Source of the DNA: Nitrospirota bacterium
Lineage (GTDB): Bacteria > Nitrospirota > Nitrospiria > Nitrospirales > Nitrospiraceae
DNA: 64,000 nucleotides
Direction: 5' to 3'
NCBI GenBank assembly: GCA_026387665.1
Contig: JAPLLG010000004.1
Coordinates: 1-64,000, forward strand
This document shows positions 42,592 through 60,048 of this stretch, in pieces; within the stretch, counting starts at the first letter, position 1, and each line of letters begins with the position of its first letter. The notes under the pieces are model-generated. The model saw only the letters and a program-made list of their open reading frames with translations, made no database searches and was not told where the DNA came from. The position numbers and the translations under genes were made by a program.

Positions 42592-42624
42592 CGAACGGCG
42601 CATGGCGAATTACGAGGAGAGCCT

Positions 42625-43113: not shown

Positions 43114-43123
43114 GGTAGCCTTT

Positions 43124-43777
43124 ATGCTTCTCAAAACCATTCAAGAAGATCTTCGTGCAATATTCGACCGGGACCCCTCGGCGACCAGCTGGTTTGAAGT
43201 CGTGCTGACCTATGCCGGCTTCCATGCCATGTTGGCCTATCGCGTGTCCCATTGGCTCAAGGCCCATCGCGTTCCGTTTCTCCCTCGTTTCATTTCTCAG
43301 CTCGCCCGTTGGCTGACGGGGATCGAGATCCATCCGTCGGCGAAGATCGGCCGGGGATTCTTTATCGACCATGGCATGGGTGTCGTGATCGGCGAGACGG
43401 CGGAGATCGGGGACTTTGTGACGCTCTTTCAAGGCGTGACGCTCGGCGGAACGGGCAAAGAGCGGGGCAAGCGGCATCCGACGGTGGGGAACCATGTCGT
43501 GGTCGGAGCCGGAGCCAAGATTCTGGGCGGAATCACGATCGGCGATAATGTGAAGATCGGCGCCAATTCGGTGGTGCTGAAGAATGTCGCGGCTAACTCC
43601 ACCGTGATTGGCGTGCCGGCCCGCGTGATTAAAACGCAGGGCGAGCGGCTACCAGATGCCACCATGGACCATATCAACCTGCCAGACCCCATTAGTGACA
43701 GACTCTTGTCGCTCGAACAGGAGTTGATCGAACTTCGCAAGAAGCTGGAGAGTCAGGATTCCCCCCGCCTGTTCTAG
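43124..43777 (+). CDS. cysE: Serine O-acetyltransferase
   Basis: This 217-residue left-handed beta-helix acetyltransferase of the short EpsC type has an N-terminal helical region ([15 protein letters not shown]), then [57 protein letters not shown] and hexapeptide repeats. It forms O-acetylserine for cysteine synthesis. Its TAG stop is also the first bases of hairpin repeat copy A. Confidence 0.93.
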
Positions 43778-43903
43778 CAGGATGCTGAAAAAGGCTGCCA
43801 GCTTCGTTCTCAGCTCATCGAAATCCTCACCGTACCCCTGAGGGTACGCCTCCGGTTTCGACTCGCCTGCGGCCTTGCTGACAGCCTTTTTGAGCATCCT
43901 GCG
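43777..43903. repeat. Hairpin repeat element, copy A
   Basis: Outer arms 43777-43797 and 43883-43903 pair at 20 of 21 positions (GCAGGATGCTGAAAAAGGCTG and its complement). A second, bulged pairing joins CGAAATCC with GGTTTCG, and a central hairpin CGTACCC-CTGA-GGGTACG occupies 43831-43848. It lies between the convergent genes cysE and truA. The outer stem with its T5 run could end transcription in both directions. Four well-preserved copies, one short copy and one divergent relative are in this window. Confidence 0.85.
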
Positions 43904-43929
43904 AGTCTGCCTGCCACCACGATCCCCCG

Positions 43930-44667: not shown

Positions 44668-44695
44668 GGCTGTCGTAGGAGGAACGGCGCGGCGA

Positions 44696-45979: not shown

Positions 45980-46314
45980 GGGTGTTGACTGCCTGTAATG
46001 GGATATAGAGTTTTTTCTCAGATGTATGCCCCATTGTCAAGGGGATTGGAGGTACGAACCTCTGCGGGGCCGATTGACAGAGGGCGATACGAGCAGTAGG
46101 GTCTCTTGCAGGATGCTGAAACAGTCCGCCAGCTTCGTTCTCGCATCGTTCAGACCCTCAACGTACCCCAGGGGTACGCCTCGGGCATTCACTCGCTGCG
46201 GCCTTGCTGGACGAACTGTTTGAGCATCCTGCGGGACGATGCTTATGTGGTGGCACCTGTGCGGACTTTCCAAATCCTTGTTTGCCAGAATCTTTCTTCG
46301 ACAGGTCTTCGGCC
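45980..46314. other. Divergent intergenic region between amiC and the NYN-domain gene
   Basis: This 335-nt stretch separates genes that point away from each other, so it should hold promoters for both. A TTGACA lies on the minus strand (46035-46040), but no -10 box at suitable spacing was found. Over a third of the region is hairpin repeat copy B. No small gene is supported. Confidence 0.45.
46108..46232. repeat. Hairpin repeat element, copy B
   Basis: The arms GCAGGATGCTGAAACAGTCC and its near-complement GGACGAACTGTTTGAGCATCCTGC bound the element. In this copy the outer stem has ACAGT/ACTGT where others have AAAGG/CCTTT, a paired change. The central hairpin (46162-46178) is CGTACCC-CAG-GGGTACG. 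Unlike copies A and D it lies upstream of two divergent genes, so a terminator role is not obvious here. Confidence 0.82.
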
Positions 46315-46848
46315 ATGGCACTCCATTTGATCGTTGATGGGTACAATCTCCTGGCTCAGACGAGTCGGATCGGCGGCGGGGTGAGCCTGCATTCCGAGCA
46401 GGCGCGCGAAGCCCTGCTACGCGATCTGGCTGCCTACCGTCAGAGAAAGTCCCATGCCATCACCGTGGTCTTCGATGGATGGCAGCAGGGCTGGGGCACG
46501 GAGCGGCGTGAACATCGGCTCGGTCTTGAGGTGATCTTTTCCCGGCGGGGAGAAAAGGCCGATCAGGTGATCCAGCGTCTGGCTGCCGAATATGGGTCCG
46601 ACTGCGCGGTGGTGAGTTCCGATCGGGAGATCGTCGACTTTGCTAGGGCGCAGGGCGCCTTCGTGATGAAGGCGCAGGAGTTTTCCGGAAAGCTACAGGG
46701 GGCGTCGGCCCAGACCGGCGTATTGCTACATAAAGAACTGGATACGGGAGAGGATCTTCGACCGAAACGGGGGCCAGAGAAGCGTGGAAATCCTCGGAAA
46801 CTGCCCAAGGCGCAGCGTCAGCGCAGCCGGCAGCTCAAACGATTTTGA
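46315..46848 (+). CDS. NYN-domain (YacP-like) predicted ribonuclease
   Basis: This 177-residue protein has LHLIVDGYNLLAQ at the start, then TVVFDGWQQG and CAVVSSDREIVDFARAQGAFVM, the acidic-residue pattern of NYN/PIN-like nucleases of the YacP group. The C-terminal ~45 residues are strongly basic and could bind RNA. YacP (Rae1) cleaves mRNA on the ribosome in Bacillus; whether this relative does so is unknown. Its 3' end overlaps the convergent tatD by 14 nt. Confidence 0.82.
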   Translation: MALHLIVDGYNLLAQTSRIGGGVSLHSEQAREALLRDLAAYRQRKSHAITVVFDGWQQGWGTERREHRLGLEVIFSRRGEKADQVIQRLAAEYGSDCAVVSSDREIVDFARAQGAFVMKAQEFSGKLQGASAQTGVLLHKELDTGEDLRPKRGPEKRGNPRKLPKAQRQRSRQLKRF

Positions 46849-47614
46849 ACAGGCGTTTCGCGTTCTCGGTCGTGATGCGGCCGATGGTTTCGATCGACAT
46901 GCCTGGCGTCTCGGCGTGAAGCTCCGCCAGCTTCTGCGCGACGAGGGCCACGTAGGCCGGTTCGTTTCGTTTGCCTCTGTGAGGGATGGGCGTGAGGTAG
47001 GGGCAGTCGGTTTCGATCAGGAGCCGGTCCAGCGGAGCGGTCTTGGCGATGTCCCGGAGCGTCGCCGCGCTCTGAAAGGTGAGAATGCCGGAGAAGGAGA
47101 GATAGAATCCCAGGTCCAGCGCTTCTTTCGCCAGCCAGGCATCCCCTGAGAAACAGTGAAATACCCCGCCGATTTCCGTCGCGCGCTCCTCTTTTAGAAT
47201 CGCAATCGTATCCTCTTGGGCCTCTCGCGTGTGAATGATCACGGGAAGGCACAGCTCGCGTGCGAGCTGGATCTGCTCGCGGAATCGCTCGCGCTGTTCT
47301 TGGGGCGATGAGTGGTTGTAGTGGTAGTCGAGGCCGATCTCTCCATAGGCGACGACTTTTTTGTTCTGCGCCAGACGGCGGAGCTCGTCGTACCAGCCAT
47401 CGAGGATATGTTTCACTTCATGGGGGTGGACGCCGATGGAGGCATAGACGAAGGGATGTTGTGCCGCTAGCGCCGCCGCTGCTTGGCTGGTGGCCAGATC
47501 GCAGCCGATGGTCACGAAGGCCTCGACGCCTGCTTCCCTGGCGCGGGCAATCATGGCCTCACGGTCCTCATTGTAGCGGGCATCGTCCAGATGGGTATGG
47601 GTGTCGATGAGCAT
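46835..47614 (-). CDS. tatD: TatD-family metal-dependent hydrolase (DNase)
   Basis: This 259-residue TIM-barrel protein begins MLIDTHTHLDDARY. Metal ligands are visible in DTHTHLD, GEIGLDYHY, PVIIHTREA, GVFHCFSGD and IETDCPYLTP. TatD proteins are 3'-to-5' exonucleases or deoxyribonucleases. It is downstream of the DAHP synthase gene on the same strand, with repeat copy C between them. Confidence 0.93.
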   Translation of the reverse strand: MLIDTHTHLDDARYNEDREAMIARAREAGVEAFVTIGCDLATSQAAAALAAQHPFVYASIGVHPHEVKHILDGWYDELRRLAQNKKVVAYGEIGLDYHYNHSSPQEQRERFREQIQLARELCLPVIIHTREAQEDTIAILKEERATEIGGVFHCFSGDAWLAKEALDLGFYLSFSGILTFQSAATLRDIAKTAPLDRLLIETDCPYLTPIPHRGKRNEPAYVALVAQKLAELHAETPGMSIETIGRITTENAKRLFKIV

Positions 47615-47626
47615 GCGGGTCTTTAT

Positions 47627-47751
47627 CAGGATGCTGAAAAAGGCCGCCAGCTTCGTTCTCGGCTCATCGAAATCCTCAACGTACCCCTGAGGGTACGCCT
47701 CCGGTTTCGATTCGCCTGCGGCCTTGCTGGACAGCCTTTTTGAGCATCCTG
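47627..47751. repeat. Hairpin repeat element, copy C
   Basis: CAGGATGCTGAAAAAGGC (47627-47644) pairs with GCCTTTTTGAGCATCCTG at the right-hand end, and the centre is CGTACCC-CTGA-GGGTACG (47680-47697). It lies 108 nt after the minus-strand DAHP synthase stop and just upstream of tatD, so it could terminate the aroG transcript. Confidence 0.85.
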
Positions 47752-47859
47752 TGGTTATTGCGGCTTTAATACTGTACGAAATATTCTCGCATATGTTTCG
47801 TGCACACCGAGTTTTTCCGCAACCTGCTAGTGGGGGATCGGCTGAAGACCGAAGTGGTG

Positions 47860-48918
47860 CTACGCGGGCTTGGTCACGATCGTGTCGGCCAGTTCGTTGA
47901 GGAGCGATTCGGTCTCCTCCCAGCCGAGGCAGGCATCGGTGATGGAAACGCCGTGGGCCAGTGTTTTGCCCTGCTGCCAGGTTTGTTTGCCGGGATTGAG
48001 GTTGCTTTCGAGCATCAGGCCCATGATGGACTGGCGGCCTTCGCGGAACTGTTTGAGGACATCTCTGGCGACGAGGCTTTGGCGCCGGTGGTCCTTGCTC
48101 GAATTGTCGTGCGAACAGTCGATCATGATGGGACGGGCGATGCCGTCGCCTGCCACGACCGCTTCCGCGCGGGCCACATGTTCGGCTTCGTAATTGGTTT
48201 TGCCTCCGCCGCCTCGAAGCACGATATGGCGGTCCGGGTTGCCCGTGGTCTTGATGATCGAGGTGAGCCCGTCGGCATTGATGCCCAGAAAATGATGCGG
48301 CTGCTTCGCGGCCACCATCGCGTTCCAGGCTACGAGAAGATCGCCCCCTGTGCCGTTCTTGAATCCGACCGGCATCGACAGGCCGCTAGCCATTTCCCGG
48401 TGCGGCTGGCTCTCGGTGGTGCGGGCGCCGATGGCGACCCAGCTCCAGAGATCGGCTATATATTGAGGCGACACCGGGTCCAAGGCTTCCGCTGCGCAGG
48501 GGATCCCGCGTTTATTGATGTTGAGCAGGATCGTCCGGGCCAGTTCCAGGCCTGTTCCAATATCGCAGGTGCCGTCTAGGTGTGGATCGTTGATGAGGCC
48601 CTTCCAGCCAACCGTGGTGCGGGGCTTTTCAAAGTAGGTTCGCATGACGATCAGTAATCGGTCGCGCAACGCATCGGTCACCGGTTTCAATCGGTCGGCA
48701 TACTCATAGGCGGCCTCAGGATCATGGATTGAACAGGGCCCGACGATGACGAGCAGGCGCTCACGGTCTTGCCCGTGCAGGATGCGGCGAATGGCCTCTC
48801 TGGTTTCGATGACCAGGGTGGCGGCTTGGTCGGTAATCGGCAGTTTTGACTTGATCGTCCGCGGCGAGGGCAGCGGTTTGATTTCAAGGATATGTTGGTT
48901 ATCGAGCGGTTGATTCAT
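47860..48918 (-). CDS. aroG: 3-deoxy-7-phosphoheptulonate (DAHP) synthase, class I
   Basis: This 352-residue protein begins MNQPLDNQHILEIKPLPSP. Typical segments are VIVGPCSIHDPEAAYEYA, the catalytic MRTYFEKPRTTVGWKG, GFKNGTGGD and DCSHDNSSKDHRRQ. It condenses PEP and erythrose-4-phosphate, opening the shikimate pathway. The frame is open to 49161, but homology starts here. Which AroF/G/H feedback type it is cannot be told. Confidence 0.93.
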   Translation of the reverse strand: MNQPLDNQHILEIKPLPSPRTIKSKLPITDQAATLVIETREAIRRILHGQDRERLLVIVGPCSIHDPEAAYEYADRLKPVTDALRDRLLIVMRTYFEKPRTTVGWKGLINDPHLDGTCDIGTGLELARTILLNINKRGIPCAAEALDPVSPQYIADLWSWVAIGARTTESQPHREMASGLSMPVGFKNGTGGDLLVAWNAMVAAKQPHHFLGINADGLTSIIKTTGNPDRHIVLRGGGGKTNYEAEHVARAEAVVAGDGIARPIMIDCSHDNSSKDHRRQSLVARDVLKQFREGRQSIMGLMLESNLNPGKQTWQQGKTLAHGVSITDACLGWEETESLLNELADTIVTKPA

Positions 48919-48953
48919 CGCGCAGCCTTTTTGCAAAGAAATAATGAGTGCAA

Positions 48954-48962
48954 AGTATACCA
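48954..48962 (-). promoter_or_regulatory. Extended -10 promoter element upstream of aroG
   Basis: On the minus strand the sequence reads TGGTATACT, an extended -10 box (TGn plus TATACT), about 36 nt before the aroG start codon. No good -35 box is present, as is usual for extended -10 promoters. The stretch from 48919 to 49165 otherwise contains no gene. Confidence 0.45.
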
Positions 48963-49165
48963 GAGCTCTCAGTCGAAATCTATGGACGGAGCTCGTAAGA
49001 CCTTCAATAGCTAAGGGATTTGAGTAATTCGGAAGGGGGCCTGGCGGCCGCAGGACATCAATAATGTGCGGGAATGAGGGGCTCTGTCTGCCTGGCGTCT
49101 CCTGCCTTTTGTGGCTGAAATCGTTGGTGGAAGGAGCCCTTCCGTTTGACGGGTTTCTCAAGGGT

Positions 49166-49507
49166 ATGGTAGTTCAATTGGGTATGAAGCGATGGTTTAC
49201 TCACTCTGTCAGTCTTCGAGTCTTGGCCTCCCTGGGCCTGATTCTCTTACTGCTGACGATCGCTCCCTTTGCGGCCGCGCAGGATGTGCATCATGAGTTA
49301 GCCGCGGCTGACCATGATGGGCACGAACATTCCGACACTGACCTCTGCCAGTGGGTGCAACACCATACGGCTGGCTCTCTCGATGTCGGGGCTCCTCTCC
49401 TGACCGCCTGCGAACTCGTCAATCTATTAGAGCTTCCGGCTGACTCAGTCCTGCTCTCCTTCGAACTCTCCACTCCCGGCCCTTCCCGCGCTCCTCCCCT
49501 CGGCTAA
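49166..49507 (+). CDS. Small secreted histidine-rich protein (DUF2946-like)
   Basis: This protein is about 113 residues from ATG 49166; ATG 49184 or a start at 49064 are alternatives. A signal peptide (VLASLGLILLLLTIAPFAAAQ) is followed by DVHHELAAADHDGHEHSDTDLCQWVQHHTAG, rich in His and Asp, and ends with a short hydrophobic region. Such proteins often precede TonB-dependent receptor genes for metals; DUF2946 is the closest family that comes to mind. A periplasmic role in binding Cu, Zn, Ni or Co is inferred from composition and from the neighbouring receptor, CobW and CDF genes. Confidence 0.6.
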   Translation: MVVQLGMKRWFTHSVSLRVLASLGLILLLLTIAPFAAAQDVHHELAAADHDGHEHSDTDLCQWVQHHTAGSLDVGAPLLTACELVNLLELPADSVLLSFELSTPGPSRAPPLG

Positions 49508-49606
49508 TCACGTCACTTCGGCTTGCTCCATACGTGGGATTGTTGCCGTGTGGCCATCCTCGATGGGTGCTGGCGTTTTTTTACTGCGTGATCGGTAGAG
49601 GGTTTC

Positions 49607-52027
49607 ATGGGACCTAGTTGCTGTCGTTTCCTATTTCGTTCTATCTATTTTTGCCTGTGCTGGAGCTTGCTCGCTCATGCGCAGGTTCTTGCAGCCGAGT
49701 CTACCCTCATTGCCGGATCGGTCCAGAGTCAGGACCTCCGCCGAGTGGGGCAGGTGCTTGTCGAGGTGAAGGATCAAGAGGGAGCTTTGGTCGCGACCGG
49801 CCTCTCGAATGAGGCGGGGGAGTTCAGGATTTCCGTTCCTGCCGATGGAACCTATTCCGTCAGCGCCAGACAGGATAGCTATCGAAGCGAATACGTCGTG
49901 ATGAAGATCGGGACCGAGCCGCCCGGTCCCGTTGTTTTGACCCTCTCCAAGACCAGAGAGATCGCCCTCGAAGTACGGTCGTCCCTGGCTCCGATTCACG
50001 ACAAGCTGTCGAGTGAGACCTATGCGGTCAGCCGCAAAGACATCGAAGAATTGCCGCGCGGCAACAATGTGGAGTTGCAGGACGTGTTGCTCACGATTCC
50101 AAGCGCTTCCTATGGCTCGCTCAAACAAGTCCATATCCGGCAGGACCATGCCAATCTCCAGTTGCGGATCGACGGGGTGCCGATTCCCGATACCGTGTCG
50201 TCTACCTTCTCCGATGTGATCTCGCCGCGGGCCTGGGAACGGGCGGATATTATTCTGGGCGGTATGGAAGCCCAGTATGGAAATAAGACGGCTGCGGTGC
50301 TGGACATTACGACCAAGAGCGGTACCAAGCCTGGCTTCGGGTCGGCGCAAATGTTCGGCGGGTCGAATCAGACGGCCAGTCCCTCGTTCGAATATGGCGG
50401 CACGGTCGGCGAGAAGTTCCGGTTCTACGTCTTGAATAGTTATACCTCGACGAATCGCGGCATCGAGCCTCCGACGCTGGGCCATTCGATCTTTCACGGG
50501 CAAAGCGAGCGGAACCAGACGTTCATGCGCGGCGACTATCAGCACGACAATGCGAACAACTTTTCCTGGGTGTTCTTGAATTCCGTCGCGAAGTATCAGA
50601 TTCCGACCATGCCAGGCCGGGCGCTCGATCCCAGCGGGCAGATGCTGCCGCTGCTCCGGGCGAGCAGGCCGGGATTCACGCCGGTGGCGTCCCAGGCCAT
50701 CGACGAGAACCAACAAGAGAATAACCAGTATGGCCACATGGTCTGGCGGCACGATGTGAACAGCAGTAATTTCTTCAACCTCTCCGGCTATGTTCGCCAG
50801 ACGAGGGCCACGTTCAAGACGGACCCATTCAACCTGCTTGCCTATACGGCAGATCCGACCGCGCAATTTTCCGCCGGGAGCCAGGATCGGAGCGCCAATT
50901 CGAGCGGAGCCCGGTTCGACCACACCTATGTTCCATCCAAGGAGCATGTGGTCAAGGCCGGATTTCAGGTCGATCGGACTCAGACGGTGAACAAGACGCG
51001 ACTGTTCACTTTTGCAGACGACGGGGTGGGCAATCCGACGGGAACGATGTTGGAGCGGAACGCCGACAACCGTCTGATCGGCTGGCGTCAAGAATTCTGG
51101 GTGCAGGATCAGTGGAGTCCGAACGATCGTTGGACGTTCAACCTCGGCGTGAGGGGCGACGCAGTGCAGTATCAGCGCCATGAGGGGCAGCTCAGCCCAC
51201 GGGTTGGGGTGGCGTACAAGGCCGATCAGTCCAATGTGTTTCACGTCTTCTACGGACGGCAGTTTACGCCGCCGAATCTCGAAGCGATTTCCTTTGCGAA
51301 GCTCAATACGGCCGGCACGAAGGCGGCGCCGGAAAATACGATGAACAATATCGTCAGGGCCGAGCGGGCTCATTATTTCGAGGCTGGGAGCGACCATGCT
51401 CTTTCACGCTGGGCGACCCTGCAATTGACCGGCTACTACAAGCTCTCGCATTTTTTGTCTGACGCGGGCCAGTTCGGCACGACCCCCCTCTTGAACTACT
51501 TTGCTTTTGAGCGGGGCTGGCAGCGCGGTATCGATGCAGCGCTAAAGCTGCAGTTGCGGGAGGATCTGACTGCGAGGGGGAGCATGGCTTGGGGGCAATG
51601 TAAGGGCTATGGTCTTCAATCGGGTCACGTTCTTCTGGATCAAAAGACGATCAACGATATCAACTCCACCGGCGGAGTGTTCTGCGATCACTCGCAGACG
51701 CTCACGAGTTCCAGCCTAGTGGCCTATCGGTTCAAGGAGCGGACGACTCTTTCTGGACAGATGCTCTACGCGTCCGGGCTGCGTGCGGCAGAAGAGGGGG
51801 CCAAGACCAATTCGACCCACAGCCCCTCCTATACGATTTATAACCTCTCCCTCACTCACGTCATCCCCTTGCCCTGGGACAATCAGAAGTTTCTCTTGGG
51901 CTTTGACGTCATCAATCTGCTGGATCAAAAGTATCTCATCAATCAAGGTGAGGGCAGTATCGGCCTGGGAGTGTCGCATGCCGGGATGCCGAGGTCGTTC
52001 TTCTTCCGGGGCCAGTGGTTTTTCTGA
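49607..52027 (+). CDS. TonB-dependent outer-membrane receptor with N-terminal carboxypeptidase-regulatory-like domain
   Basis: This 806-residue protein. A signal peptide (to about residue 30) is followed by a beta-sandwich (LIAGSVQSQDLRRVGQVLVEVKDQEGALVATGLSNEAGEFRISVP), a plug domain (IEELPRGNNVELQDVLLTIPSA, then HIRQDHANLQLRIDGVPIPDT) and a 22-strand-type barrel that ends in FFFRGQWFF with the terminal aromatic residue expected for outer-membrane insertion. The substrate is not deducible from sequence; a nearby CobW GTPase, a CDF exporter and a His-rich protein hint at a transition metal. An antisense frame of 588 codons overlaps it and is a shadow. Confidence 0.9.
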   Translation: MGPSCCRFLFRSIYFCLCWSLLAHAQVLAAESTLIAGSVQSQDLRRVGQVLVEVKDQEGALVATGLSNEAGEFRISVPADGTYSVSARQDSYRSEYVVMKIGTEPPGPVVLTLSKTREIALEVRSSLAPIHDKLSSETYAVSRKDIEELPRGNNVELQDVLLTIPSASYGSLKQVHIRQDHANLQLRIDGVPIPDTVSSTFSDVISPRAWERADIILGGMEAQYGNKTAAVLDITTKSGTKPGFGSAQMFGGSNQTASPSFEYGGTVGEKFRFYVLNSYTSTNRGIEPPTLGHSIFHGQSERNQTFMRGDYQHDNANNFSWVFLNSVAKYQIPTMPGRALDPSGQMLPLLRASRPGFTPVASQAIDENQQENNQYGHMVWRHDVNSSNFFNLSGYVRQTRATFKTDPFNLLAYTADPTAQFSAGSQDRSANSSGARFDHTYVPSKEHVVKAGFQVDRTQTVNKTRLFTFADDGVGNPTGTMLERNADNRLIGWRQEFWVQDQWSPNDRWTFNLGVRGDAVQYQRHEGQLSPRVGVAYKADQSNVFHVFYGRQFTPPNLEAISFAKLNTAGTKAAPENTMNNIVRAERAHYFEAGSDHALSRWATLQLTGYYKLSHFLSDAGQFGTTPLLNYFAFERGWQRGIDAALKLQLREDLTARGSMAWGQCKGYGLQSGHVLLDQKTINDINSTGGVFCDHSQTLTSSSLVAYRFKERTTLSGQMLYASGLRAAEEGAKTNSTHSPSYTIYNLSLTHVIPLPWDNQKFLLGFDVINLLDQKYLINQGEGSIGLGVSHAGMPRSFFFRGQWFF

Positions 52028-52028
52028 T

Positions 52029-52110
52029 CGGATGCCGAACAAGGTCGCCAGCATCGTTCTCAGTCGCCGGGCTCCTTGCGGCCTTGTTGCTGGCCCGTTT
52101 GAGCATCCGC
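52029..52110. repeat. Short hairpin repeat element, copy E
   Basis: CGGATGCCGAACAAGGTCGCCAGC at the left is matched by GCCTTGTTGCTGGCCCGTTTGAGCATCCGC at the right, and TTCGTTCTC becomes ATCGTTCTC. The copy is shortened to about 82 nt and has lost the central CGTACCC hairpin. It starts two bases after the receptor's stop codon and separates it from the TonB-C-like gene. Confidence 0.7.
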
Positions 52111-52135
52111 AATCAATAGGGTAGGATGCGCGGTG

Positions 52136-52564
52136 ATGAGATTATTTTTCGCGATATCTATTGCAGTGGTGTTGGCCTGGCCTGCCTTTGCCTATGCGGT
52201 GGCTGGTGACGAGGCTACTCATGCGGACGATCACCATGAAGATGTGCTGGAGTTGCCCGAGGTCCATGTCCATGGCCTGCCGCTCAACAAAGACCAGCAA
52301 GTAGGTCCTGTCCCTAAAGCGACGCCCTGGCCTGCCATTCCCTCGTCGCTGGATGGACGAGAGCTCGACGATTGGATGAAGGTGCGTATGTTGGTTTCCA
52401 AGGGTGCGGCTGTGACCGTCGTGGTCTTGGAGCCGGCGAGGCACCGTGAACTGACCATCGCAGGCATGGCCGCTCTGAGTAAATGGACCTTCGATCCTCA
52501 GTTGAAAGGTGATGAGCCGATTGATGGGGAGCTCACCGTACGGATCCATTTTCGCACTCGCTAA
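52136..52564 (+). CDS. Short periplasmic TonB-C-like protein, histidine-rich
   Basis: This 142-residue protein from ATG 52136 (GTG 52133 also possible). The first ~22 residues form a signal peptide or short anchor; DDHHEDVLELPEVHVHG follows. The remainder (about 70-142) resembles a TonB C-terminal domain: VRMLVSKGAAVTVVVLEPARHRELTIAGMAALSKWTFDPQLKGDEPIDGELTVRIHF. It lacks the long Pro-rich spacer of a normal TonB, so it may not energise the receptor by itself. Its position directly after the receptor suggests a dedicated partner. Confidence 0.68.
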   Translation: MRLFFAISIAVVLAWPAFAYAVAGDEATHADDHHEDVLELPEVHVHGLPLNKDQQVGPVPKATPWPAIPSSLDGRELDDWMKVRMLVSKGAAVTVVVLEPARHRELTIAGMAALSKWTFDPQLKGDEPIDGELTVRIHFRTR

Positions 52565-52575
52565 GAAACGCTGAT

Positions 52576-53106
52576 ATGAACATCGACGAATCGCTCTTTC
52601 GCGCTATCAACGGTTTTGCCGGACAGTCGGCATGGCTGGACCAATGGGCGCTCAATTTCTCAGACCCGGGCCTCTTGTGGGCTCCTTGCATACTCATGAC
52701 CGGTTATTGGATCTGGTTGTCTTGGCGGGAAGCGGTGATGGCAGCTCCAGTGTTGGCTGCTTCCATCGGCTTGTTGGATTTTCTCGGGGCGAGGATCAAG
52801 GATCTTGTGGCTCGGCCGCGGCCTTGCATGGCACTTCCTGATATCCACCAGATTGAAGGCTGCGGCAAGACGTTTGGATTTCCATCGAACCACGCGATCA
52901 ATACTGCGACCGCTGCGGCGTTTCTTCATGTGCTCTATCCGCGATCTGGATGGGTGAGTTGGCCGTTGGTCGGACTGATCGGGCTATCGCGTGTCTATAT
53001 CGGGGCTCACTATGTCACGGATGTGCTGGGGGGCTGGATGATCGGTGGATTGCTCGGAGCTGGATCGGCTTGGTTATTGTTGCGCTACTCCCGTTTCCGC
53101 TCCTAG
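52576..53106 (+). CDS. PAP2-family membrane phosphatase
   Basis: This 176-residue protein with about five transmembrane helices and all three phosphatase motifs: KDLVARPRPC, FPSNHAINT and SRVYIGAHYVTDVLGG. Members dephosphorylate phosphatidate or undecaprenyl diphosphate at the membrane. It follows the TonB-C-like gene by 11 nt. Its stop TAG overlaps repeat copy D. Confidence 0.9.
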   Translation: MNIDESLFRAINGFAGQSAWLDQWALNFSDPGLLWAPCILMTGYWIWLSWREAVMAAPVLAASIGLLDFLGARIKDLVARPRPCMALPDIHQIEGCGKTFGFPSNHAINTATAAAFLHVLYPRSGWVSWPLVGLIGLSRVYIGAHYVTDVLGGWMIGGLLGAGSAWLLLRYSRFRS

Positions 53107-53231
53107 CAGGATGCTGAAAAAGCCCGCCAGCTTCGTTCTCGGCTCATCGAAATCCTCAACGTACCCCTGAGGGTACGCCTCCGGTTTCGACTCGCCTGCG
53201 GCCTTGCTGGACGGACTTTTTGAGCATCCTG
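53106..53231. repeat. Hairpin repeat element, copy D
   Basis: Starts with the final G of the PAP2 stop codon (TAGCAGGATGCTGAAAAAGCCCG) and ends CGGACTTTTTGAGCATCCTG. The centre at 53160-53177 is CGTACCC-CTGA-GGGTACG. It lies between the convergent PAP2 and CobW-like genes and could serve as a bidirectional terminator. Its inner sequence is nearly identical to copy C. Confidence 0.85.
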
Positions 53232-53271
53232 AAGAAACTCTGCCATGCGCAGAGAGTTTCCACTCAGCCTG

Positions 53272-54228
53272 CTACTTCTCCAGACAGTTCAATAATTCTG
53301 CTTGGCACCGTTCCTGGTCGTAGCCTCGTCCAATCAAGACGATCGCGTGCCTCGGTTCGTCGAGCAGGGTGATCGGCGTGATGGTCGCATTGCCTGGCGG
53401 GGCATATTGAAATTCTTGCAGCTCCGGTCCCTTGGCGAAGCGGAAGAAGCCCTTTGCCCGTTCAAGCTCAGGGGGCAGGGTCTTCATCCAGCGCAGGAAT
53501 CGCTCAAAGTTCAAGGGGCCTGGCAGCAACACCGTTGTGGCAATCGGGTGGTAGGAGGCTCGCTTGTTCGTTGCGGGCGAGCGAGGCACGCCGAATTCCA
53601 CATTGATCGCTGGGGGCGGGGCAATGCGGGTGATCGGTTCGAGCAGTGAGAAGGGATCGACCCTGGCCTGGCTGGTTTCCCAGACCCTGGCATAGGGATT
53701 CTGCTTGGTGATCGAGTCCTTGAATCCCTCCCAATGGCCTGCGACGTAGAGATCTTTTTTATTGAGGATCAACTCGTCAGCGCAGCGAATCGCCTGTGTC
53801 GTCACGAAGCCAGCCATGCTCTCCCGGTCGGTCGGGATCGGATGCAGCAAGGCGATGACTTTATCCAGCCGTGCGAGCTGTGCGGTGTAGAGATCGGTGA
53901 CGGCATCGATGACTTCGGCTGGGTCTGCCATGCCGGAACATTCGAGGATGATGACATCCGACTCATAGTCCCGCACCAGTTGGGCGATGCCCCAGGACAG
54001 GTCTTCTTTCGTATCGCAGCAGACGCAGCCGCCCGCGAGGTTCATGACCTGTTCTGCGATGGTGCCGGCGCGGGGACCGTCGATGCTGACCTCGCCTGCT
54101 TCGTTCATCAAGACGCCGGCTCGCTTGCCCTGGCTCTTCCAATGTTCAAGGAGCCTCATGAGGAGGGTGGTTTTGCCTGCGCCGAGGGAGCCGCAGAGAA
54201 TGTAAAAAGGAATCGGGCTTGTGGTCAT
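53272..54228 (-). CDS. CobW/G3E-family GTPase, putative metallochaperone
   Basis: This 318-residue protein has a P-loop at residues 13-20 (GSLGAGKT), the zinc-binding GCVCC motif at 67-71, the ECSGMADP segment and LNKKDL as the base-specificity motif. A CobW C-terminal domain follows (KRASYHPIATTVLLPGPLNFERFLRWMKTL). Such GTPases deliver Zn, Co or Ni to client proteins. It is next to a CDF exporter on the same strand. Confidence 0.88.
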   Translation of the reverse strand: MTTSPIPFYILCGSLGAGKTTLLMRLLEHWKSQGKRAGVLMNEAGEVSIDGPRAGTIAEQVMNLAGGCVCCDTKEDLSWGIAQLVRDYESDVIILECSGMADPAEVIDAVTDLYTAQLARLDKVIALLHPIPTDRESMAGFVTTQAIRCADELILNKKDLYVAGHWEGFKDSITKQNPYARVWETSQARVDPFSLLEPITRIAPPPAINVEFGVPRSPATNKRASYHPIATTVLLPGPLNFERFLRWMKTLPPELERAKGFFRFAKGPELQEFQYAPPGNATITPITLLDEPRHAIVLIGRGYDQERCQAELLNCLEK

Positions 54229-54285
54229 GGTCTCACGTATGAATTGTGAACGAGACGAATAGGCTGCTGCACGATAAGAGATCGA

Positions 54286-55230
54286 TCAGTGGTGCACGTG
54301 TACGAGCCCTTCATCCCGGTGGTGCTTGGCCAGCGTGGTGAGATCGCAGTGGATCTCGTTCGGCTGGCAGCAGGCAGTGCCCATCTGAATCGTCAGGTGC
54401 TTGATGCCGAACTCGGCGCTGACCTTGGTTCGGATGGTCTGGAGCAGGCCATTGGTCATGGCCGAATCGTCTCCATCGACGAGGATATGGCAGGTCAGCA
54501 TGATCAACCGTGGTTCCACGGCCCAGATATGGAGGTCGTGGACGTTCTTGACGCCGGGAATAGCTTCGATCGTGGTTGCCACATGCGTGGCGCTGATATG
54601 GGACGGCGTCGATTCCAGCAAGACCTCCAGTGATTCTCTGAATAGCGGCCAGGCTCCTTTGGCAATGGCCACGACGACCAGCAAGCTGATGAGCGGATCG
54701 AAAATGGTCCATCCGGCGAAGAGGATGGCGGCGCCGCTGATCACGACTCCCAGCGACACCCAGGCGTCGCCCAGCATGTGCCAGAAGGCGCTGCGGATAT
54801 TGAGATCGTCCTTGGCTCCATGCTGCAAGAGCAATGCAATGCTGAGATTGGCTGCGAAGCTGAGCGCCGCGATCGCCATGACCCAGGCTCCGTCCACCGG
54901 GACTGGTTGCAGCAGCCGATTGATTCCCACGACTGTGATGCCAATGGCCGTGAGCAACAGGATAAACGAATTCAGAAATGCCGCAATGATGCCGGCCCTG
55001 TGATAGCCGAACGTTCTGGCTTCTGTGGCAGGCCTGGCCGTGAGGAGATGGGCATAGAGGGCCAGAAAGAGCGAACCCTGGTCGACGAGGTTATGGCCCG
55101 CGTCGCTCATGAGTCCGATGCTGTTGAGGATCCATCCGCCGATGAACTCAGCGACGATGATCGCGGCGTTCAGCGCCAGGGCGAGCGTCAGCCGGGAGCG
55201 GAGATGTTCGTAGGAGGCCGGAGTAGACAT
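54286..55230 (-). CDS. Cation diffusion facilitator (CzcD/ZitB-type) exporter
   Basis: This 314-residue protein from CAT 55228-55230, with six transmembrane helices. The metal-site pairs are visible in helix II (SDAGHNLVD, H46/D50) and helix V (HMLGDAW, His/Asp), the H-x3-D pattern usual for Zn/Co transport. A C-terminal cytoplasmic domain (VKNVHDLHIWAVEP) and a final HHRDEGLVHVHH follow. It expels divalent cations from the cytoplasm. Confidence 0.92.
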   Translation of the reverse strand: MSTPASYEHLRSRLTLALALNAAIIVAEFIGGWILNSIGLMSDAGHNLVDQGSLFLALYAHLLTARPATEARTFGYHRAGIIAAFLNSFILLLTAIGITVVGINRLLQPVPVDGAWVMAIAALSFAANLSIALLLQHGAKDDLNIRSAFWHMLGDAWVSLGVVISGAAILFAGWTIFDPLISLLVVVAIAKGAWPLFRESLEVLLESTPSHISATHVATTIEAIPGVKNVHDLHIWAVEPRLIMLTCHILVDGDDSAMTNGLLQTIRTKVSAEFGIKHLTIQMGTACCQPNEIHCDLTTLAKHHRDEGLVHVHH

Positions 55231-55311
55231 TGATGATAGTTTCGCACGGCCGTTGCGTCTCAGCAAGCCTTCAGGGGAGGGGCAGCCGCCTGGCTGTGGC
55301 CACCGCCAGGG

Positions 55312-57327
55312 TTACTTTACCTTGGTGCCTGGGTCCACTTCTTCGAGGATGGTGGCAAGACCGCGCACTTCGCTGTCCCCTGCGGCCAGGACCATGCCTT
55401 GCGATTCGACGCCCATGAGTTTCGCCGGCTTCAGGTTCGCGACAATGATGATCATCTTGCCGATCAGGGCCTCCGGCTCGTATTTCTTGCCGATGCCTGC
55501 GACGATCTGCCGTTGTTCCCCTCCCTCGCCAAGACTGACTTGCAGTTTGAGGAGCTTTTCCGACTTCGGCACCCGCTCCGCGCTGATGACCTTCGCGGTC
55601 TTGAGCTGAATCTTCATGAAGTCGTCGATAGTGATCTGGGCCGGCGCGGCTGGCGCAGCAGCAGCGGCTGCTGGTTGCGGGGCGGGAATGGCCGGCGTGG
55701 GGATCGCTGCTGTCGGTTGCGGGGGAATGGTTGCGTCGCTCACGGTCTTCGCTCCTTGTGGTTTTGTTTCGATGCGGGGGAACAGGCCGGGGCCTTTGCA
55801 AATCTTTGTCTCGGGAAACGGCGCGTCCCATTCGTAGGCTGTCTGCGGTAGCGGTTTTGAAAAGTCGAACGAGAGGCCGAGTTGCTGGGCTAGCTGCCCG
55901 GCCGTCTGGGGCATGTAGGGATAGAGGAGGACAGAGATTAAGCGCAGCGCCCTTGAGGCTGTATGCAGGACTGTATTGAGGCGCGGGTGGTTCTCCGGAT
56001 TCTTGGCCAGTTGCCAGGGCGCAGCCTTGTCGATGTATTCGTCGCAGAGGCCGATCAGTTCCCAAATGGCCTGGAGATTTTCCCGGAAGGCGAGCGCACG
56101 GAATCCATGCTCGATTTTTTCCGGCAGGCTGGTCGCGGTTGCGGCGATCCTGTCTTCCAGCTCCGGAAGGGCCGGAGTGCCAGGCGCGGGAATCGTGCCG
56201 ATGGCGAACCGCTCGATCATGGTCAATGTGCGGCTCAACAGATTGCCGACCCCGTTGGCCAAGTCGCTGTTGATGATGGTGACCATGGTGGATTGCGAAA
56301 AGTCTCCGTCCTGTCCGAACGGGACTTCCCGAAACAAGAAATGCCGGAACGCATCGGCGCCGATGGTCTCGATCATCTTGTGCGGGTCCACGACATTGCC
56401 GCGGCTCTTCGACATCTTTTCCCCGTCGACGGTCCACCAGCCGTGAGCGAAGATCGTTTTCGGCAGCGGCAGGTTCAGGGCCATGAGCATCGTGGACCAG
56501 TAGACTGCGTGGGTCGTCAGAATATCTTTCCCGACCAGATGGACCGAGGCAGGCCAGAACTGATCGAAGGAGGGCTTCTTCGGGAGATATTCCAAGGCTG
56601 AGACATAGTTCACCAGCGCGTCGAACCAGACGTAGGTCACGCAGTCTTTGTCGAAGGGGAGTTCAATGCCCCAGGAGAGTCTTGATTTAGGCCGGGAGAT
56701 CGAGAGGTCGCCGAGGGTTTGCGTCGTCAGAAATCCAAGGACTTCATTGCGCCGGGATTCTGGGCGGATGAAGTCAGGATGTTGTTTGATGTGGTCGATC
56801 AGGCGTTCCTGATACTGCCCCATCTTGAAAAAGTAGTTGTGTTCGCTGAGCTGCTCTACCGGGCGTTTGCAGTCGGGGCAGAGGCCGCCTGTGACATCCT
56901 TCTCGGTCCAGAACCGTTCGTCGAAGGTGCAGTACCAGCCAGTGTAATCGGCTTTGTAAATCAAGCCCGCATCGAAGAGCTCTTGAAGATATCGCTGGAC
57001 GACTGACTTGTGCGGGGCATCGGTCGTCCTGATGAAGGCGTCGTGCGAGATGTTCAGTCGTTTCCAGAGTTCCTGAAACTGGGGCGCGAGCTTGTCGCAA
57101 TGGGCTTGCGGGTCGATGCCGGCTTTGGCGGCGGCCTGCTGAACCTTTTGCCCATGCTCGTCGAGCCCTGTGAGGAAAAAGACGTCGCGCCCCCGCAAGC
57201 GCCAGTAGCGGGCCAGGACGTCGGCCGCCACGGTGGTATAGGCATGCCCGATATGGGGCACGTCGTTCACGTAATAGATCGGCGTCGTGATGTAGAAGCT
57301 GTTGGGATTACTCATGGGGCGTGACAA
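55312..57327 (-). CDS. metG: Methionyl-tRNA synthetase
   Basis: This protein is 671 residues from CAT at 57327, or 667 from the next in-frame Met. It has the class I signature PHIGHAYT, the CPDC zinc knuckle, the KMSKS motif in GEKMSKSRGNVVDP and a C-terminal tRNA-binding domain (about 575-671) for dimerisation. Between catalytic and tRNA-binding parts lies a ~40-residue Pro/Ala-rich linker (about 535-575) of low complexity. Confidence 0.95.
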   Translation of the reverse strand: MSRPMSNPNSFYITTPIYYVNDVPHIGHAYTTVAADVLARYWRLRGRDVFFLTGLDEHGQKVQQAAAKAGIDPQAHCDKLAPQFQELWKRLNISHDAFIRTTDAPHKSVVQRYLQELFDAGLIYKADYTGWYCTFDERFWTEKDVTGGLCPDCKRPVEQLSEHNYFFKMGQYQERLIDHIKQHPDFIRPESRRNEVLGFLTTQTLGDLSISRPKSRLSWGIELPFDKDCVTYVWFDALVNYVSALEYLPKKPSFDQFWPASVHLVGKDILTTHAVYWSTMLMALNLPLPKTIFAHGWWTVDGEKMSKSRGNVVDPHKMIETIGADAFRHFLFREVPFGQDGDFSQSTMVTIINSDLANGVGNLLSRTLTMIERFAIGTIPAPGTPALPELEDRIAATATSLPEKIEHGFRALAFRENLQAIWELIGLCDEYIDKAAPWQLAKNPENHPRLNTVLHTASRALRLISVLLYPYMPQTAGQLAQQLGLSFDFSKPLPQTAYEWDAPFPETKICKGPGLFPRIETKPQGAKTVSDATIPPQPTAAIPTPAIPAPQPAAAAAAPAAPAQITIDDFMKIQLKTAKVISAERVPKSEKLLKLQVSLGEGGEQRQIVAGIGKKYEPEALIGKMIIIVANLKPAKLMGVESQGMVLAAGDSEVRGLATILEEVDPGTKVK

Positions 57328-57354
57328 AAGATAGCAGGTAATAAACGGCGAAAG

Positions 57355-57543
57355 CTAGGAGCCTGTCCGGCATTGCTGTTCGTTACGAGGCGGAGAAGGC
57401 GCGGGTAGATGCGCGACCGCAGGTTCCGAAAAACCGGAGGCGTATTCGAGGAATACGTTGAGGGTTTTTCGGGGCCGAGAACAAGGCAGATGCCCGTGCA
57501 TTATCCGACGCAGTAGAACGGCCAATGCCGGATAGGTTCCTAG
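57355..57543. repeat. Large inverted-repeat element, copy F (divergent relative of the hairpin element)
   Basis: The arms CTAGGAGCCTGTCCGGCATT (57355-57374) and AATGCCGGATAGGTTCCTAG (57524-57543) pair at 18 of 20 positions. Inside, CCGAAAAACC (57426-57435) and GGTTTTTCGG (57463-57472) are perfect complements, and the centre CGTATTC-GAG-GAATACG (57441-57457) is a 7-bp hairpin. On the minus strand, CCTCAACGTA...TACGCCTCCGG matches the core of copies A to D, but the arms differ completely. The right arm overlaps the holB stop codon. Confidence 0.75.
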
Positions 57544-58568
57544 GCTGGCAGAGGGGCGGACGACAGGGTGAGCGCGTCGCGCAGGCGGAGCAGGATCATT
57601 TCCAGGGCCATCTGGAGATTGAGATGGCGCGTGGCTCGCTGCTCGGTCAGTTCGATTTCGCGGAGCAGGCCCAGCAATGCATCGGTATCGGCCTGCTGCG
57701 CGTAGGCTTCCAGTGTGCTGAGATCGTCGAGGTTGAGTATCTGGTCGCGATCTCCTCCGACCTGGATCAAGACGAGGTCGCGGATCCAACGAGTTAGCCA
57801 GGCGAGGATGTCCTGGGCCCGGTCTGCCTTGGCAATTGCTTCCGCCGAAGACAGGATGGATCCGATCGATTGCAAGGATTGGGGCCGGACCAAGTCCACG
57901 AGTTCTTGCTGGCGCGCGCGCGTGTCTTTCACGTCGGACGTGAGGGCTTCTCCGATACGGCCCTCGCTGATGATGGCGAGGAATCGCGCGTCTGCCGGGG
58001 GGATTTCTCGCTTCAGGATGAGCGCGGCCTCCACCTGGGTGCGGGCCGGGGTCGTGAAGCGTAGGGCCTGACAGCGCGACCGGATGGTCGCAGGGAGGGC
58101 CGCGGGGCGGCTGGAGATCAGGAGGAAGAGACTGTGTCCGGGCGGCTCTTCCAATGTTTTCAGCAAGGCGTTGGCCGCGCCGATCGTCATGCGGTCTGCG
58201 TCGTTAATCAGGCAGATTTTCCGCTCGCCGATGAGCGGACGATACATGATCTGGTGCTCGATCTCGCGGACCTGTTCGATCTTGATTTGCTGGGTGGCCT
58301 GTTCCGGATCCGGTTCGATGACGAAAAAGTCCGGATGGGTGCGGGCTTCGATTTGTTGGCAGGAGCGGCAGATGCCGCAACTGTCGAGGCCTTCTGTTTC
58401 TGGCGGCCGTTCGCAGCTGAGCGCTTGCGCGAAACGAATCGCCGTCAATCGTTTCCCGATCGCCTCCTCGCCATGGAACAGGTAGGCGTGAGCCAATTGC
58501 TCATGGGCGACGGCAGCTTGTAAGAGCGTAATGGATTGCTGATGGCCGATGCAGTCGCGAAAGGGCAT
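57540..58568 (-). CDS. holB: DNA polymerase III delta-prime subunit
   Basis: This 342-residue AAA+ clamp-loader protein. HAYLFHGEEAIGKRLTAIRFAQAL is the modified P-loop region, C-x-C-type zinc ligands follow (LDSCGICRSC), then RKICLINDADRMTIGAANALLKTLEEPPGHSLFLLISSRPAALPATIRSRCQ, the conserved delta-prime/SRC motif. It helps load the beta clamp. It ends where repeat copy F begins and is 2 nt from tmk. Confidence 0.88.
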   Translation of the reverse strand: MPFRDCIGHQQSITLLQAAVAHEQLAHAYLFHGEEAIGKRLTAIRFAQALSCERPPETEGLDSCGICRSCQQIEARTHPDFFVIEPDPEQATQQIKIEQVREIEHQIMYRPLIGERKICLINDADRMTIGAANALLKTLEEPPGHSLFLLISSRPAALPATIRSRCQALRFTTPARTQVEAALILKREIPPADARFLAIISEGRIGEALTSDVKDTRARQQELVDLVRPQSLQSIGSILSSAEAIAKADRAQDILAWLTRWIRDLVLIQVGGDRDQILNLDDLSTLEAYAQQADTDALLGLLREIELTEQRATRHLNLQMALEMILLRLRDALTLSSAPLPA

Positions 58569-58569
58569 G

Positions 58570-59247
58570 TTAGCTCCGGCAGCGTGACGATCGACGCGGT
58601 TTCGCTATCCAGCCTAGCACGATCTCTGTGAGCTCGTCCCGGACTTCTTGCGCGGGGCGATTCGCATCCACGATCTTCATGCGGCCCGGTTCTTCTGCCG
58701 CGAGAGCCAGAAACCCCCGGCGTACTTTTCGATGGAAACGTTCTGCCTCCCGGTCCAGCCGATTCTGCTGGCCACGATCGGCTCGCCTCCTGGCCAAGCC
58801 CACTGAAATGGGGAGGTCGAGGACGAGGGTGAGGTTCGGCGCCAGTCCGTCTGTTGCGACGTCGTTGGCTTTCCGAAGCCATTGCAGATCAAGACCCCGC
58901 GCGAATCCTTGGTAGGCCAGGGTGGAATCGGAAAACCGGTCGCAGAGCACGACGGTGCCGTTCCGTAATGCCGGTTCGATGAGATGCGTGACGTGCTGGC
59001 TTCTCGCGGCCAGAATCAGCAGGGCCTCCGCTTGCGGTGTGACCGGTTCTTTTGACGAGGCAGTGAGGAGAATATGGCGGATTGCTTCGGCTGTCGCGGT
59101 GCCGCCCGGTTCTCTCGTTTGGAGTACGCGATAGCCTGCCTTGGTCAGCACCTTGGCGAGGTGGCTGATCTGGGTGCTTTTCCCGCTGCCCTCGACTCCC
59201 TCCAGGGTAATGAAGAGACCGCGAGTCTGTCGCTTTTTTGTGCCCAT
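58570..59247 (-). CDS. tmk: Thymidylate kinase
   Basis: This 225-residue protein from CAT 59245-59247. LFITLEGVEGSGKSTQISHL is the P-loop, LCDRFSDSTLAYQGFARGL the DR motif and the LID region carries RRADRGQQNRLDRE. It phosphorylates dTMP. The frame is open to 59313 without homology. The gene lies directly upstream of holB on the same strand, a common bacterial arrangement. Confidence 0.93.
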   Translation of the reverse strand: MGTKKRQTRGLFITLEGVEGSGKSTQISHLAKVLTKAGYRVLQTREPGGTATAEAIRHILLTASSKEPVTPQAEALLILAARSQHVTHLIEPALRNGTVVLCDRFSDSTLAYQGFARGLDLQWLRKANDVATDGLAPNLTLVLDLPISVGLARRRADRGQQNRLDREAERFHRKVRRGFLALAAEEPGRMKIVDANRPAQEVRDELTEIVLGWIAKPRRSSRCRS

Positions 59248-59346
59248 TGAGCTGGTTCTCTCACCGGTGAAGAAAACGGGCGGGATGGTATTCCAAGTTG
59301 TTGAAAATAGCAAGAAAAGGCTTGCGAGGCCGTCATCATTCTCTGT

Positions 59347-60048
59347 ATGATGACGGCCTACTTCCGGCGGCTCTCATTTATGCTGAAAACCTCGCTAAAA
59401 CGCTACTTTCTGACAGGCCTGCTGGTGATTATCCCCCTGTGGGGAACCGTCCTCATTTTGAAGACCCTTTTCGTGGCGGTGGATGGGATTTTGGGAGACC
59501 TCCTGGTCCGGTTGGTGCCGAGTCATTATGTGCCGGGATTGGGGATTCTTTCGTTGATTCTGTTGGTGCTGGTGACCGGGCTTTTTGCCACGAACTTCAT
59601 GGGCAAACAAATCGTGAAGTGGTGGGAGGACTGGTTGAACCGTGTGCCGCTCGTGCGGGGGATCTACTCGACCTTGAAGTCCATGATGGACATTTTGTCC
59701 TTTTCCGACCATCCGTCCTATAACCGCGTCGTGCTGATTCAGTTTCCCAAGAGCGGCAACTATTGTTTCGCCTTCGTGACCGGCGCGACCAAAGGAGAGA
59801 TGCAAGATCTCGCGCAGGAGCCTTTGATCCATGTCTATGTGCCGACGTCGCCGAATCCGACGTCCGGCTATTTCCTCCTGGTGCCGGAACATGAAGTTGC
59901 CGCTATCGATATGAGCGTAGAAGAGGCGATGAAGCTCATCGTCTCAGGCGGGCTCTGTTCGCCCTCCACGTCCCTGTCCTCGGCCGTGATGGCCGCGACG
60001 AAGCAGAGCATGGTCAAGCAGCCTGAATCGGGAGTGCCGATCGGATGA
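59347..60048 (+). CDS. DUF502-family membrane protein
   Basis: This 233-residue protein with two N-terminal transmembrane helices (about 19-43 and 65-85). Diagnostic segments are LKRYFLTGLLVIIPLWGTVLIL, RVPLVRGIYSTLKSM and VYVPTSPNPTSGYFLLVPEHEV, the DUF502 pattern. Function is unknown; relatives are predicted envelope proteins. ATG 59380 is an alternative start. It overlaps glmU by 4 nt (ATGA at 60045-60048). Confidence 0.88.
   Translation: MMTAYFRRLSFMLKTSLKRYFLTGLLVIIPLWGTVLILKTLFVAVDGILGDLLVRLVPSHYVPGLGILSLILLVLVTGLFATNFMGKQIVKWWEDWLNRVPLVRGIYSTLKSMMDILSFSDHPSYNRVVLIQFPKSGNYCFAFVTGATKGEMQDLAQEPLIHVYVPTSPNPTSGYFLLVPEHEVAAIDMSVEEAMKLIVSGGLCSPSTSLSSAVMAATKQSMVKQPESGVPIG

What the first reader, a model, noticed from the sequence alone, without database searches (positions are those of the whole stretch)
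57355..57543. Second element with unrelated arms but the same central core
Copy F has different outer arms (CTAGGAGCCTGTCCGGCATT) yet its minus strand carries CCTCAACGTATTC...GAATACGCCTCCGG, matching the core of copies A-D while changing CCC/GGG to TTC/GAA in a way that keeps the 7-bp stem. This modular design suggests the core is the recognised part and the arms are exchangeable.
Basis: seen in the sequence. Interest (0 to 1): 0.55.

Follow-up and report, generated by a model that had tools for sequence, protein, structure and literature searches.

The report
Mobile DNA hairpin with swappable arms
A short mobile DNA hairpin without genes sits between two genes of a nitrite-oxidiser-like bacterium; its tip is nearly letter-identical in repeats of very distant bacteria while its outer arms differ, so something still unknown seems to hold the tip constant.

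Summary
Copy F is real and not chance. It is a 189-bp mobile element (57355-57543), bounded by two CTAG copies, between a holB stop codon and metG. Relatives lack it and carry one CTAG there, so it is a clean insertion with a 4-bp duplication. Its ends match a full-length IS1182-type insertion sequence in a relative. Copies A-D belong to a different miniature-element family, with ends like IS5-type insertion sequences. Both families carry the same apical hairpin: 64 exact cores in this genome, reversed control 0. The core also occurs, with unrelated self-complementary arms, in contigs labelled Rokubacteria, Methylomirabilota, Planctomycetota, Deltaproteobacteria, Treponema and Clostridia. Stems covary strongly (183 double-change cells against 60 in shuffles). 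So the modular reading holds, but 'the core is the recognised part' is not shown: the arms carry the ends that transposases of this kind use, and why the core is kept is unknown. RAYT mobilisation was tested and not supported. Verdict: MITEs (a known kind) that share a cross-phylum apical module (a new variant).

The parts
57355..57543 (-). Copy F: 189-bp MITE, strand given for the core reading
   Evidence: CTAG at both ends; 19 of 23 readable relatives have no insert and a single CTAG at this junction, the other 4 hold an unrelated insert or an F-type copy elsewhere in the gap; family of ~189-bp paired ends in relatives
57355..57358 (.). CTAG, one copy of the target duplication
57540..57543 (.). 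CTAG, other copy; holds the holB stop codon (CTA = TAG on minus)
57359..57375 (+). terminal inverted repeat GAGCCTGTCCGGCATTG
   Evidence: first 11 nt identical to the 18-nt ends of the IS1182-type element L354
57523..57539 (-). other terminal inverted repeat (GAACCTATCCGGCATTG on minus)
57434..57463 (-). apical core CCTCAACGTATTCCTCGAATACGCCTCCGG
43774..43905 (+). Copy A, hairpin of the A-type family directly behind CTAG (stop codon of a cysE-like gene); core with one mismatch
46105..46235 (+). Copy B, A-type hairpin; core with one mismatch
   Evidence: empty site in relatives
47623..47830 (+). Copy C, full-length A-type MITE (208 bp with flanking TTAT and CTAG): left end, hairpin, tail, right end TTTTTCCGCAACCTG
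53103..53275 (+). Copy D, A-type hairpin (core 53154-53184) behind CTAG, with a short tail and a degenerate right end beside CTAC
   Evidence: the right end is my reading

Best explanation
Copy F is a miniature inverted-repeat transposable element (MITE): no gene of its own, terminal inverted repeats, 4-bp CTAG duplication. It was most likely moved in trans by an IS1182-type DDE transposase. Copies A-D are a second MITE family whose ends match IS5-type elements with the same YTAR/CTAG preference. Insertion at a CTAG that holds a stop codon leaves the gene whole because the duplication restores the stop, which explains why copies so often abut stop codons. Both families carry the same folded passenger: a long hairpin whose stems change in compensating ways while the apical CTCAACGTA/TACGCCTC recurs unchanged. 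Shown: insertion, duplication, matching ends, covarying stems, cross-phylum core. Inferred: movement by those transposases. Not shown: what keeps the core constant; my guess is recognition of the folded strand (transcript or extruded single-stranded DNA) by a widespread factor.
For: Empty sites with one CTAG in 19 of 23 readable relatives. F-type paired ends about 189 bp apart in relatives. IS1182-type element L354 with perfect 18-nt ends GAGCCTGTCCGAGTAATG beside CTAG; IS5-type L369 with CAGGCTGCGGAAAAA ends, the same 15 nt as A-type right ends. A-type full-length elements of 205-210 bp. YTAR directly before the left end in 25 of 62 own copies against 0.3% background. Covariation: 183 double-change cells against 60.1, 0 of 500 shuffles. 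Core in several phyla with self-complementary unrelated arms.
Against: The own genome has no PF01609 transposase, so a resident mover is missing. L354's transposase is frame-broken, and only its first 11-12 end positions agree with F-type ends. Many A-type copies show CTAG on one side only and no clear right end (22 of 160 hairpin matches, both readings of a palindrome counted, score 15 or more). No duplication was found by script in the Rokubacterium or G017 copies. A MITE does not need a covarying interior.
Confidence: 0.8

Rival explanations
1. A REP-like palindrome moved as single-stranded DNA by a RAYT/IS200-type Y1 transposase that recognises the hairpin and a tag at its foot.
For: One-sided YTAR tag at many A-type copies; hairpin with conserved mismatches; exact-core copies lean to one replication-strand sense (48 of 64 with positive flank GC skew).
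Against: No Y1_Tnp in the own genome and none in 11 of 36 genomes checked, T. vincentii and G005 among them although both hold the core. Of 30 RAYT loci only one has a core-like hairpin nearby. F shows CTAG on both sides and a clean empty site. Length 120-190 bp.
Confidence: 0.06
2. A functional RNA element (terminator, mRNA stabiliser or processing site) that selection keeps at gene ends; mobility is only how it spread.
For: Covarying stems; 35 of 64 copies start within 5 nt of an upstream stop codon; an A-tract/T-tract flanks the A-type stem like a two-way terminator (direct reading).
Against: No gene-strand preference: 40 of 64 upstream genes point at the element, 39 of 64 downstream genes point back. 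A terminator needs no conserved tip. No Rfam match. Stop-codon location is already explained by YTAR targets.
Confidence: 0.3
3. Simple common descent: one old MITE family spread across phyla, arms drifting with compensation (or by template switching between arms), tip conserved only because the search demanded it.
For: A-type, L110 (a deltaproteobacterium) and L124/G017 share a TGAAAAA motif in the outer arm as well as the tip. The search required a perfect tip, so decayed tips were not counted.
Against: Arms are unrelated and AT-rich in Treponema and Clostridia while the tip stays letter-perfect. Template switching would also repair the fixed mismatches and loops, which persist. No exact match in 2.9 million viral contigs; F has no plasmid match.
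Confidence: 0.25

Closest known systems
Bacterial MITEs such as ERIC (RU-1), Correia/NEMIS, YPAL (review PMC2229807, passages seen)
   Same: 100-200 bp, no gene, inverted ends, short target duplication, long hairpin, mostly intergenic
   Different: Those are tabulated there for one genus or related groups, often with TA at the termini; here CTAG/YTAR, two end types in one genus, and one apical module in several phyla
IS1182-family insertion sequences
   Same: F-type ends agree over the first 11-12 nt with IS1182-type element L354 and both have CTAG on both sides; a captured IS1182 element ISPse1 is listed with 16-bp ends and a 4-bp duplication (PMC3281130, passages seen)
   Different: No transposase gene; the interior is not derived from L354, which lacks the core
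IS5-family insertion sequences
   Same: A-type right end CAGGCTGCGGAAAAA beside CTAG equals the ends of L369, transposase above the NCBIfam IS5 cut-off
   Different: No transposase gene; interior unrelated
REP/REPIN palindromes with RAYT (search listings and abstracts' beginnings seen)
   Same: Many dispersed hairpins with a short tag at one foot
   Different: 120-190 bp against 20-40 bp; no linked Y1 transposase; CTAG duplication in F

Membership tests
MITE | short, no transposase gene | tested here: met
   189 bp (F), 205-210 bp (full-length A-type)
MITE | terminal inverted repeats | tested here: met
   F: GAGCCTGTCCGGCATTG / GAACCTATCCGGCATTG; A-type: CAGGATGCTGAAAAA / CAGGCTGCGGAAAAA
MITE | target duplication and empty site | tested here: met
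   F: CTAG duplication, single CTAG in 19 of 23 relatives. A-type: CTAG both sides only in full-length copies; empty sites seen for A and B but junctions less clean
MITE | ends shared with an autonomous element | tested here: met
   8 of 25 PF01609 loci: L354 for F (first 11-12 nt); L355, L361 (one end seen), L364, L365, L367, L368, L369 for A-type
MITE | moved by that transposase | not testable with these tools
   needs a transposition assay
MITE (families outside Nitrospirota) | target duplication | tested here: inconclusive
   seen by eye at two G013 copies (CTAAG, CTAAC); script found none in G004 and G017 copies
REP/RAYT | RAYT (Y1_Tnp) in the genome, flanked by the palindromes | tested here: not met
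   0 in own genome; 25 of 36 genomes have one, but a core-like hairpin lies near only 1 of 30 RAYT loci
REP/RAYT | 20-40 bp with GTAG or CGTC tag | tested here: not met
   120-190 bp; preceding tetramer TTAG 11, CTAG 9, GTAG 2 of 62
Rfam RNA families | match above gathering score | tested here: not met
   window 42000-60000, no match above gathering, none at the elements
integron attC sites | core-site boxes, gene cassettes, integrase | not tested
   considered only; dispersed copies beside housekeeping genes make it unlikely

The most novel reading that the evidence does not exclude
The apical hairpin is an independent nucleic-acid module, kept letter-perfect in many phyla and carried by unrelated MITE families whose ends belong to different transposases: a passenger with its own function, recognised as a folded strand by a widespread unknown factor, perhaps giving these elements an orientation preference relative to replication.
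Probability: 0.35. Interest if true: 0.78.

Novelty: new variant of a known kind. Interest (0 to 1): 0.56.

Why it matters
MITEs are usually thought to need only their ends. Here part of the inside recurs: one hairpin tip appears in distant phyla under different arms and with different insertion-sequence partners, and its stems are kept paired by compensating changes. If it has a function of its own, it points to a common recognition system not yet known and gives a ready tag (CTCAACGTA..TACGCCTC) to look for it. It also accounts for a large repeat population in this bacterial family (my count 55 of 58 sampled genomes carry the looser core) and warns annotators about hairpins fused to stop codons.

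Tried and rejected
RAYT/Y1 mobilisation: searched in the own genome and in 36 genomes, flanks scanned; rejected as main reading. A pattern for whole A-type elements had the wrong gap range and found one copy with another interior. Possible autonomous copies between two A-type ends in L170 and L149 turned out to hold ordinary reading frames, no transposase recognised by eye. A scan for a core interrupted by a gene gave only pairs of different copies or weak pairings. A sense-strand 3'-UTR role was tested through gene orientation and not supported. Replication strand: a lean in the 64 exact-core copies, none in the 40 A-type arm loci without the exact core; in the complete Ca. Nitrospira defluvii record (G003) 18 of 26 copies agree if the origin is at base 1 and the terminus at mid-length (my count, both positions assumed), about p 0.08. 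Papers: text search for six core and arm strings gave 34 papers, 20 listed, none of whose titles concerns such repeats. Searches on Nitrospira with palindromes, MITEs with CTAG/IS5, IS1182 with MITE, Nitrospira with MITEs, ERIC/NEMIS, and YTAR with stop codons listed no paper that describes this family; I read passages only of PMC12306157, PMC3281130, PMC12542641 and PMC2229807. Most subscription papers are not held. [quoted passage not shown]

Full report
WHAT IS THERE. Copy F occupies 57355-57543. On the plus strand it reads CTAG-GAGCCTGTCCGGCATTG...CAATGCCGGATAGGTTC-CTAG, 189 bp with both CTAG. The minus strand carries the core CCTCAACGTATTCCTCGAATACGCCTCCGG at 57463-57434. The element folds as one long imperfect hairpin (RNA -84.6 kcal/mol, z -7.1; DNA z -4.75; 0 of 200 shuffles as good each time). 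It lies between the stop codon of a holB-like gene (57540-58568, minus) and the start of a metG gene (55312-57327, minus); names from NCBIfam.

INSERTION. Relatives show the empty place. At the metG/holB junction 19 of 23 readable relatives have no insert and a single CTAG (for example GGCGAAAGCTAGGTTGATAG in L178), where this genome has AAAG-CTAG-F-CTAG-GCTGG; of the other four, two hold an unrelated insert (L193, L195) and two hold another F-type copy at a different point of the same gap (L190, L201) (counts mine from its output). So F arrived as a unit, with a 4-bp duplication or with a CTAG carried at one end; one site cannot tell these apart. The CTAG at 57540-57543 holds the holB stop codon, so the insertion left the gene whole.

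TWO ARM FAMILIES, ONE CORE. F-type ends (CTAGGAGCCTGTCCGNNATTG, up to 2 mismatches) occur in 19 of 31 genomes tested, up to 31+28 ends in G033; paired ends lie about 189 bp apart in several genomes; the own genome has 3 such ends. A-type arms (25-nt pattern, up to 3 mismatches) occur 172 times in the own genome. Full-length A-type elements measure about 207 bp: YTAR, CAGGATGCTGAAAAA, hairpin, a tail of about 60 nt, TTTTTCCGCAGCCTG, CTAG; window copy C (47623-47830) is one. A right end scoring 15 or more of 19 was found behind 22 of 160 hairpin matches (both readings of a palindrome counted), 20 of the 22 at 59-66 nt, while the control stretch never passed 14. The other A-type copies show CTAG on one side or a right end I could not recognise. 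The left end stands directly behind YTAR in 25 of 62 copies against 0.3% of background positions. The exact core occurs 64 times in this genome (control 0), a looser core 114 times; in a sample of the phylum 76 of 195 genomes have the looser core, by my count 55 of the 58 of the same family. That family includes the record of Ca. Nitrospira defluvii, recognised by identical match positions.

PARTNERS. Of 25 loci with a PF01609 match in relatives, L354 has perfect 18-nt inverted ends GAGCCTGTCCGAGTAATG beside CTAG and two reading-frame pieces that match the NCBIfam IS1182 model (each below its whole-protein cut-off). F-type ends agree with these over the first 11-12 nt and then differ. L369 has CAGGCTGCGGAAAAA ends beside CTAG and CTAA and an IS5-family transposase well over the cut-off (267 against 140 bits). 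L355, L364, L365, L367 and L368 have similar ends and L361 shows one. A scan for the core in the eight elements' loci printed none for the seven examined, so the MITE interior is not a leftover of these elements. The own genome has no PF01609 and no PF01797 match. Movement by these transposases is inference.

STRUCTURE. On 63 A-type copies of the own genome the consensus structure has 36 pairs; 95.1% of cells pair (shuffled 86.2), 18 pairs and 183 cells change on both sides (shuffled 10.8 and 60.1), 0 of 500 shuffles reach any of the five measures, and sliding the partner by one column drops pairing to about 40%. These copies were chosen for an exact core, so invariance of the core here is by construction. 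Variant tips exist (GAGG-CTCAACGTA...TACGCCTCG-CCTC), which narrows the shared part to CTCAACGTA/TACGCCTC. The same outer arm also occurs with other interiors.

OTHER PHYLA. Several of these genomes hold it many times: 19 in G004 (Rokubacteria), 9 in G001 (Planctomycetota), 4 in T. vincentii, 18 in G019. With 21 fixed bases and 13 gap lengths one or two chance hits are expected in the whole collection (my arithmetic). Arms differ completely. In 24 representatives (one of 25 was dropped for short flanks; L054 among them has F-type arms) the 5' flank pairs with its own 3' flank at -30 kcal/mol on average against -17 with others', 0 of 10000 permutations as good; own partner is best in 16 of 24; first and last loop bases can pair in 23 of 24 and in 93 of 94 distinct loops overall; T stands before the core in 21 of 24. 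The exact core is absent from 2.9 million viral contigs, and F has no match among 72,556 plasmids. Flanking duplications are visible by eye at two G013 copies (CTAAG, CTAAC) but a script found none in G004 and G017, so outside the Nitrospira family the MITE label is provisional.

PLACE. In the own genome 23 of 64 exact-core copies begin exactly at the stop codon of the upstream gene and 35 within 5 nt; 40 of 64 upstream genes point at the element and 39 of 64 downstream genes point back (longest-ORF gene calls, not a gene finder). So copies sit at gene ends without gene-strand preference, as YTAR targets at stop codons would give. Yet with the exact core read forward the flanks have positive GC skew in 48 of 64 (p 8e-5), against 22 positive and 17 negative in 40 A-type arm loci without the exact core (shorter flanks there). 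I have no explanation for this.

VERDICT. F is best read as a MITE of IS1182 type and A-D as MITEs of IS5 type. What is unusual is the shared apical module across end types and phyla. 'The core is the recognised part' stays a hypothesis: for mobility the evidence points to the ends; for the core it points to an unknown function.

Noticed in passing
L229-L232, L236, L211, L234 (relatives of the window): A second dispersed palindrome family, roughly TTTGGTTTGTTTGGTTGAACCAAACAAACCAAATAAAC, sits in the same gene gaps and inside an A-type pair of ends.
   Followed up: no
L317, L323, L328, L337: A-type outer arms enclosing a different inner palindrome (GTGAAACGTGAAACG-like) in place of the core.
   Followed up: partly
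L055, L105, L134, L143, L345: A-type arms partly replaced by a recurring GC-rich stretch containing GGTTGGGCGGGTGAGAA or close to it.
   Followed up: no
L057 5180-5514: Three cores in tandem within about 340 bp with a repeated arm, in a genome with 19 exact cores; looks like an array.
   Followed up: no
own genome G000, 64 exact-core copies: Copies lean to one strand relative to GC skew (48 of 64), while A-type arm loci without the exact core do not.
   Followed up: partly
A-type and G017 outer arms: A G.G mismatch (CTGAAA against TTTGAG) is kept in nearly all A-type stems and also in G017.
   Followed up: no
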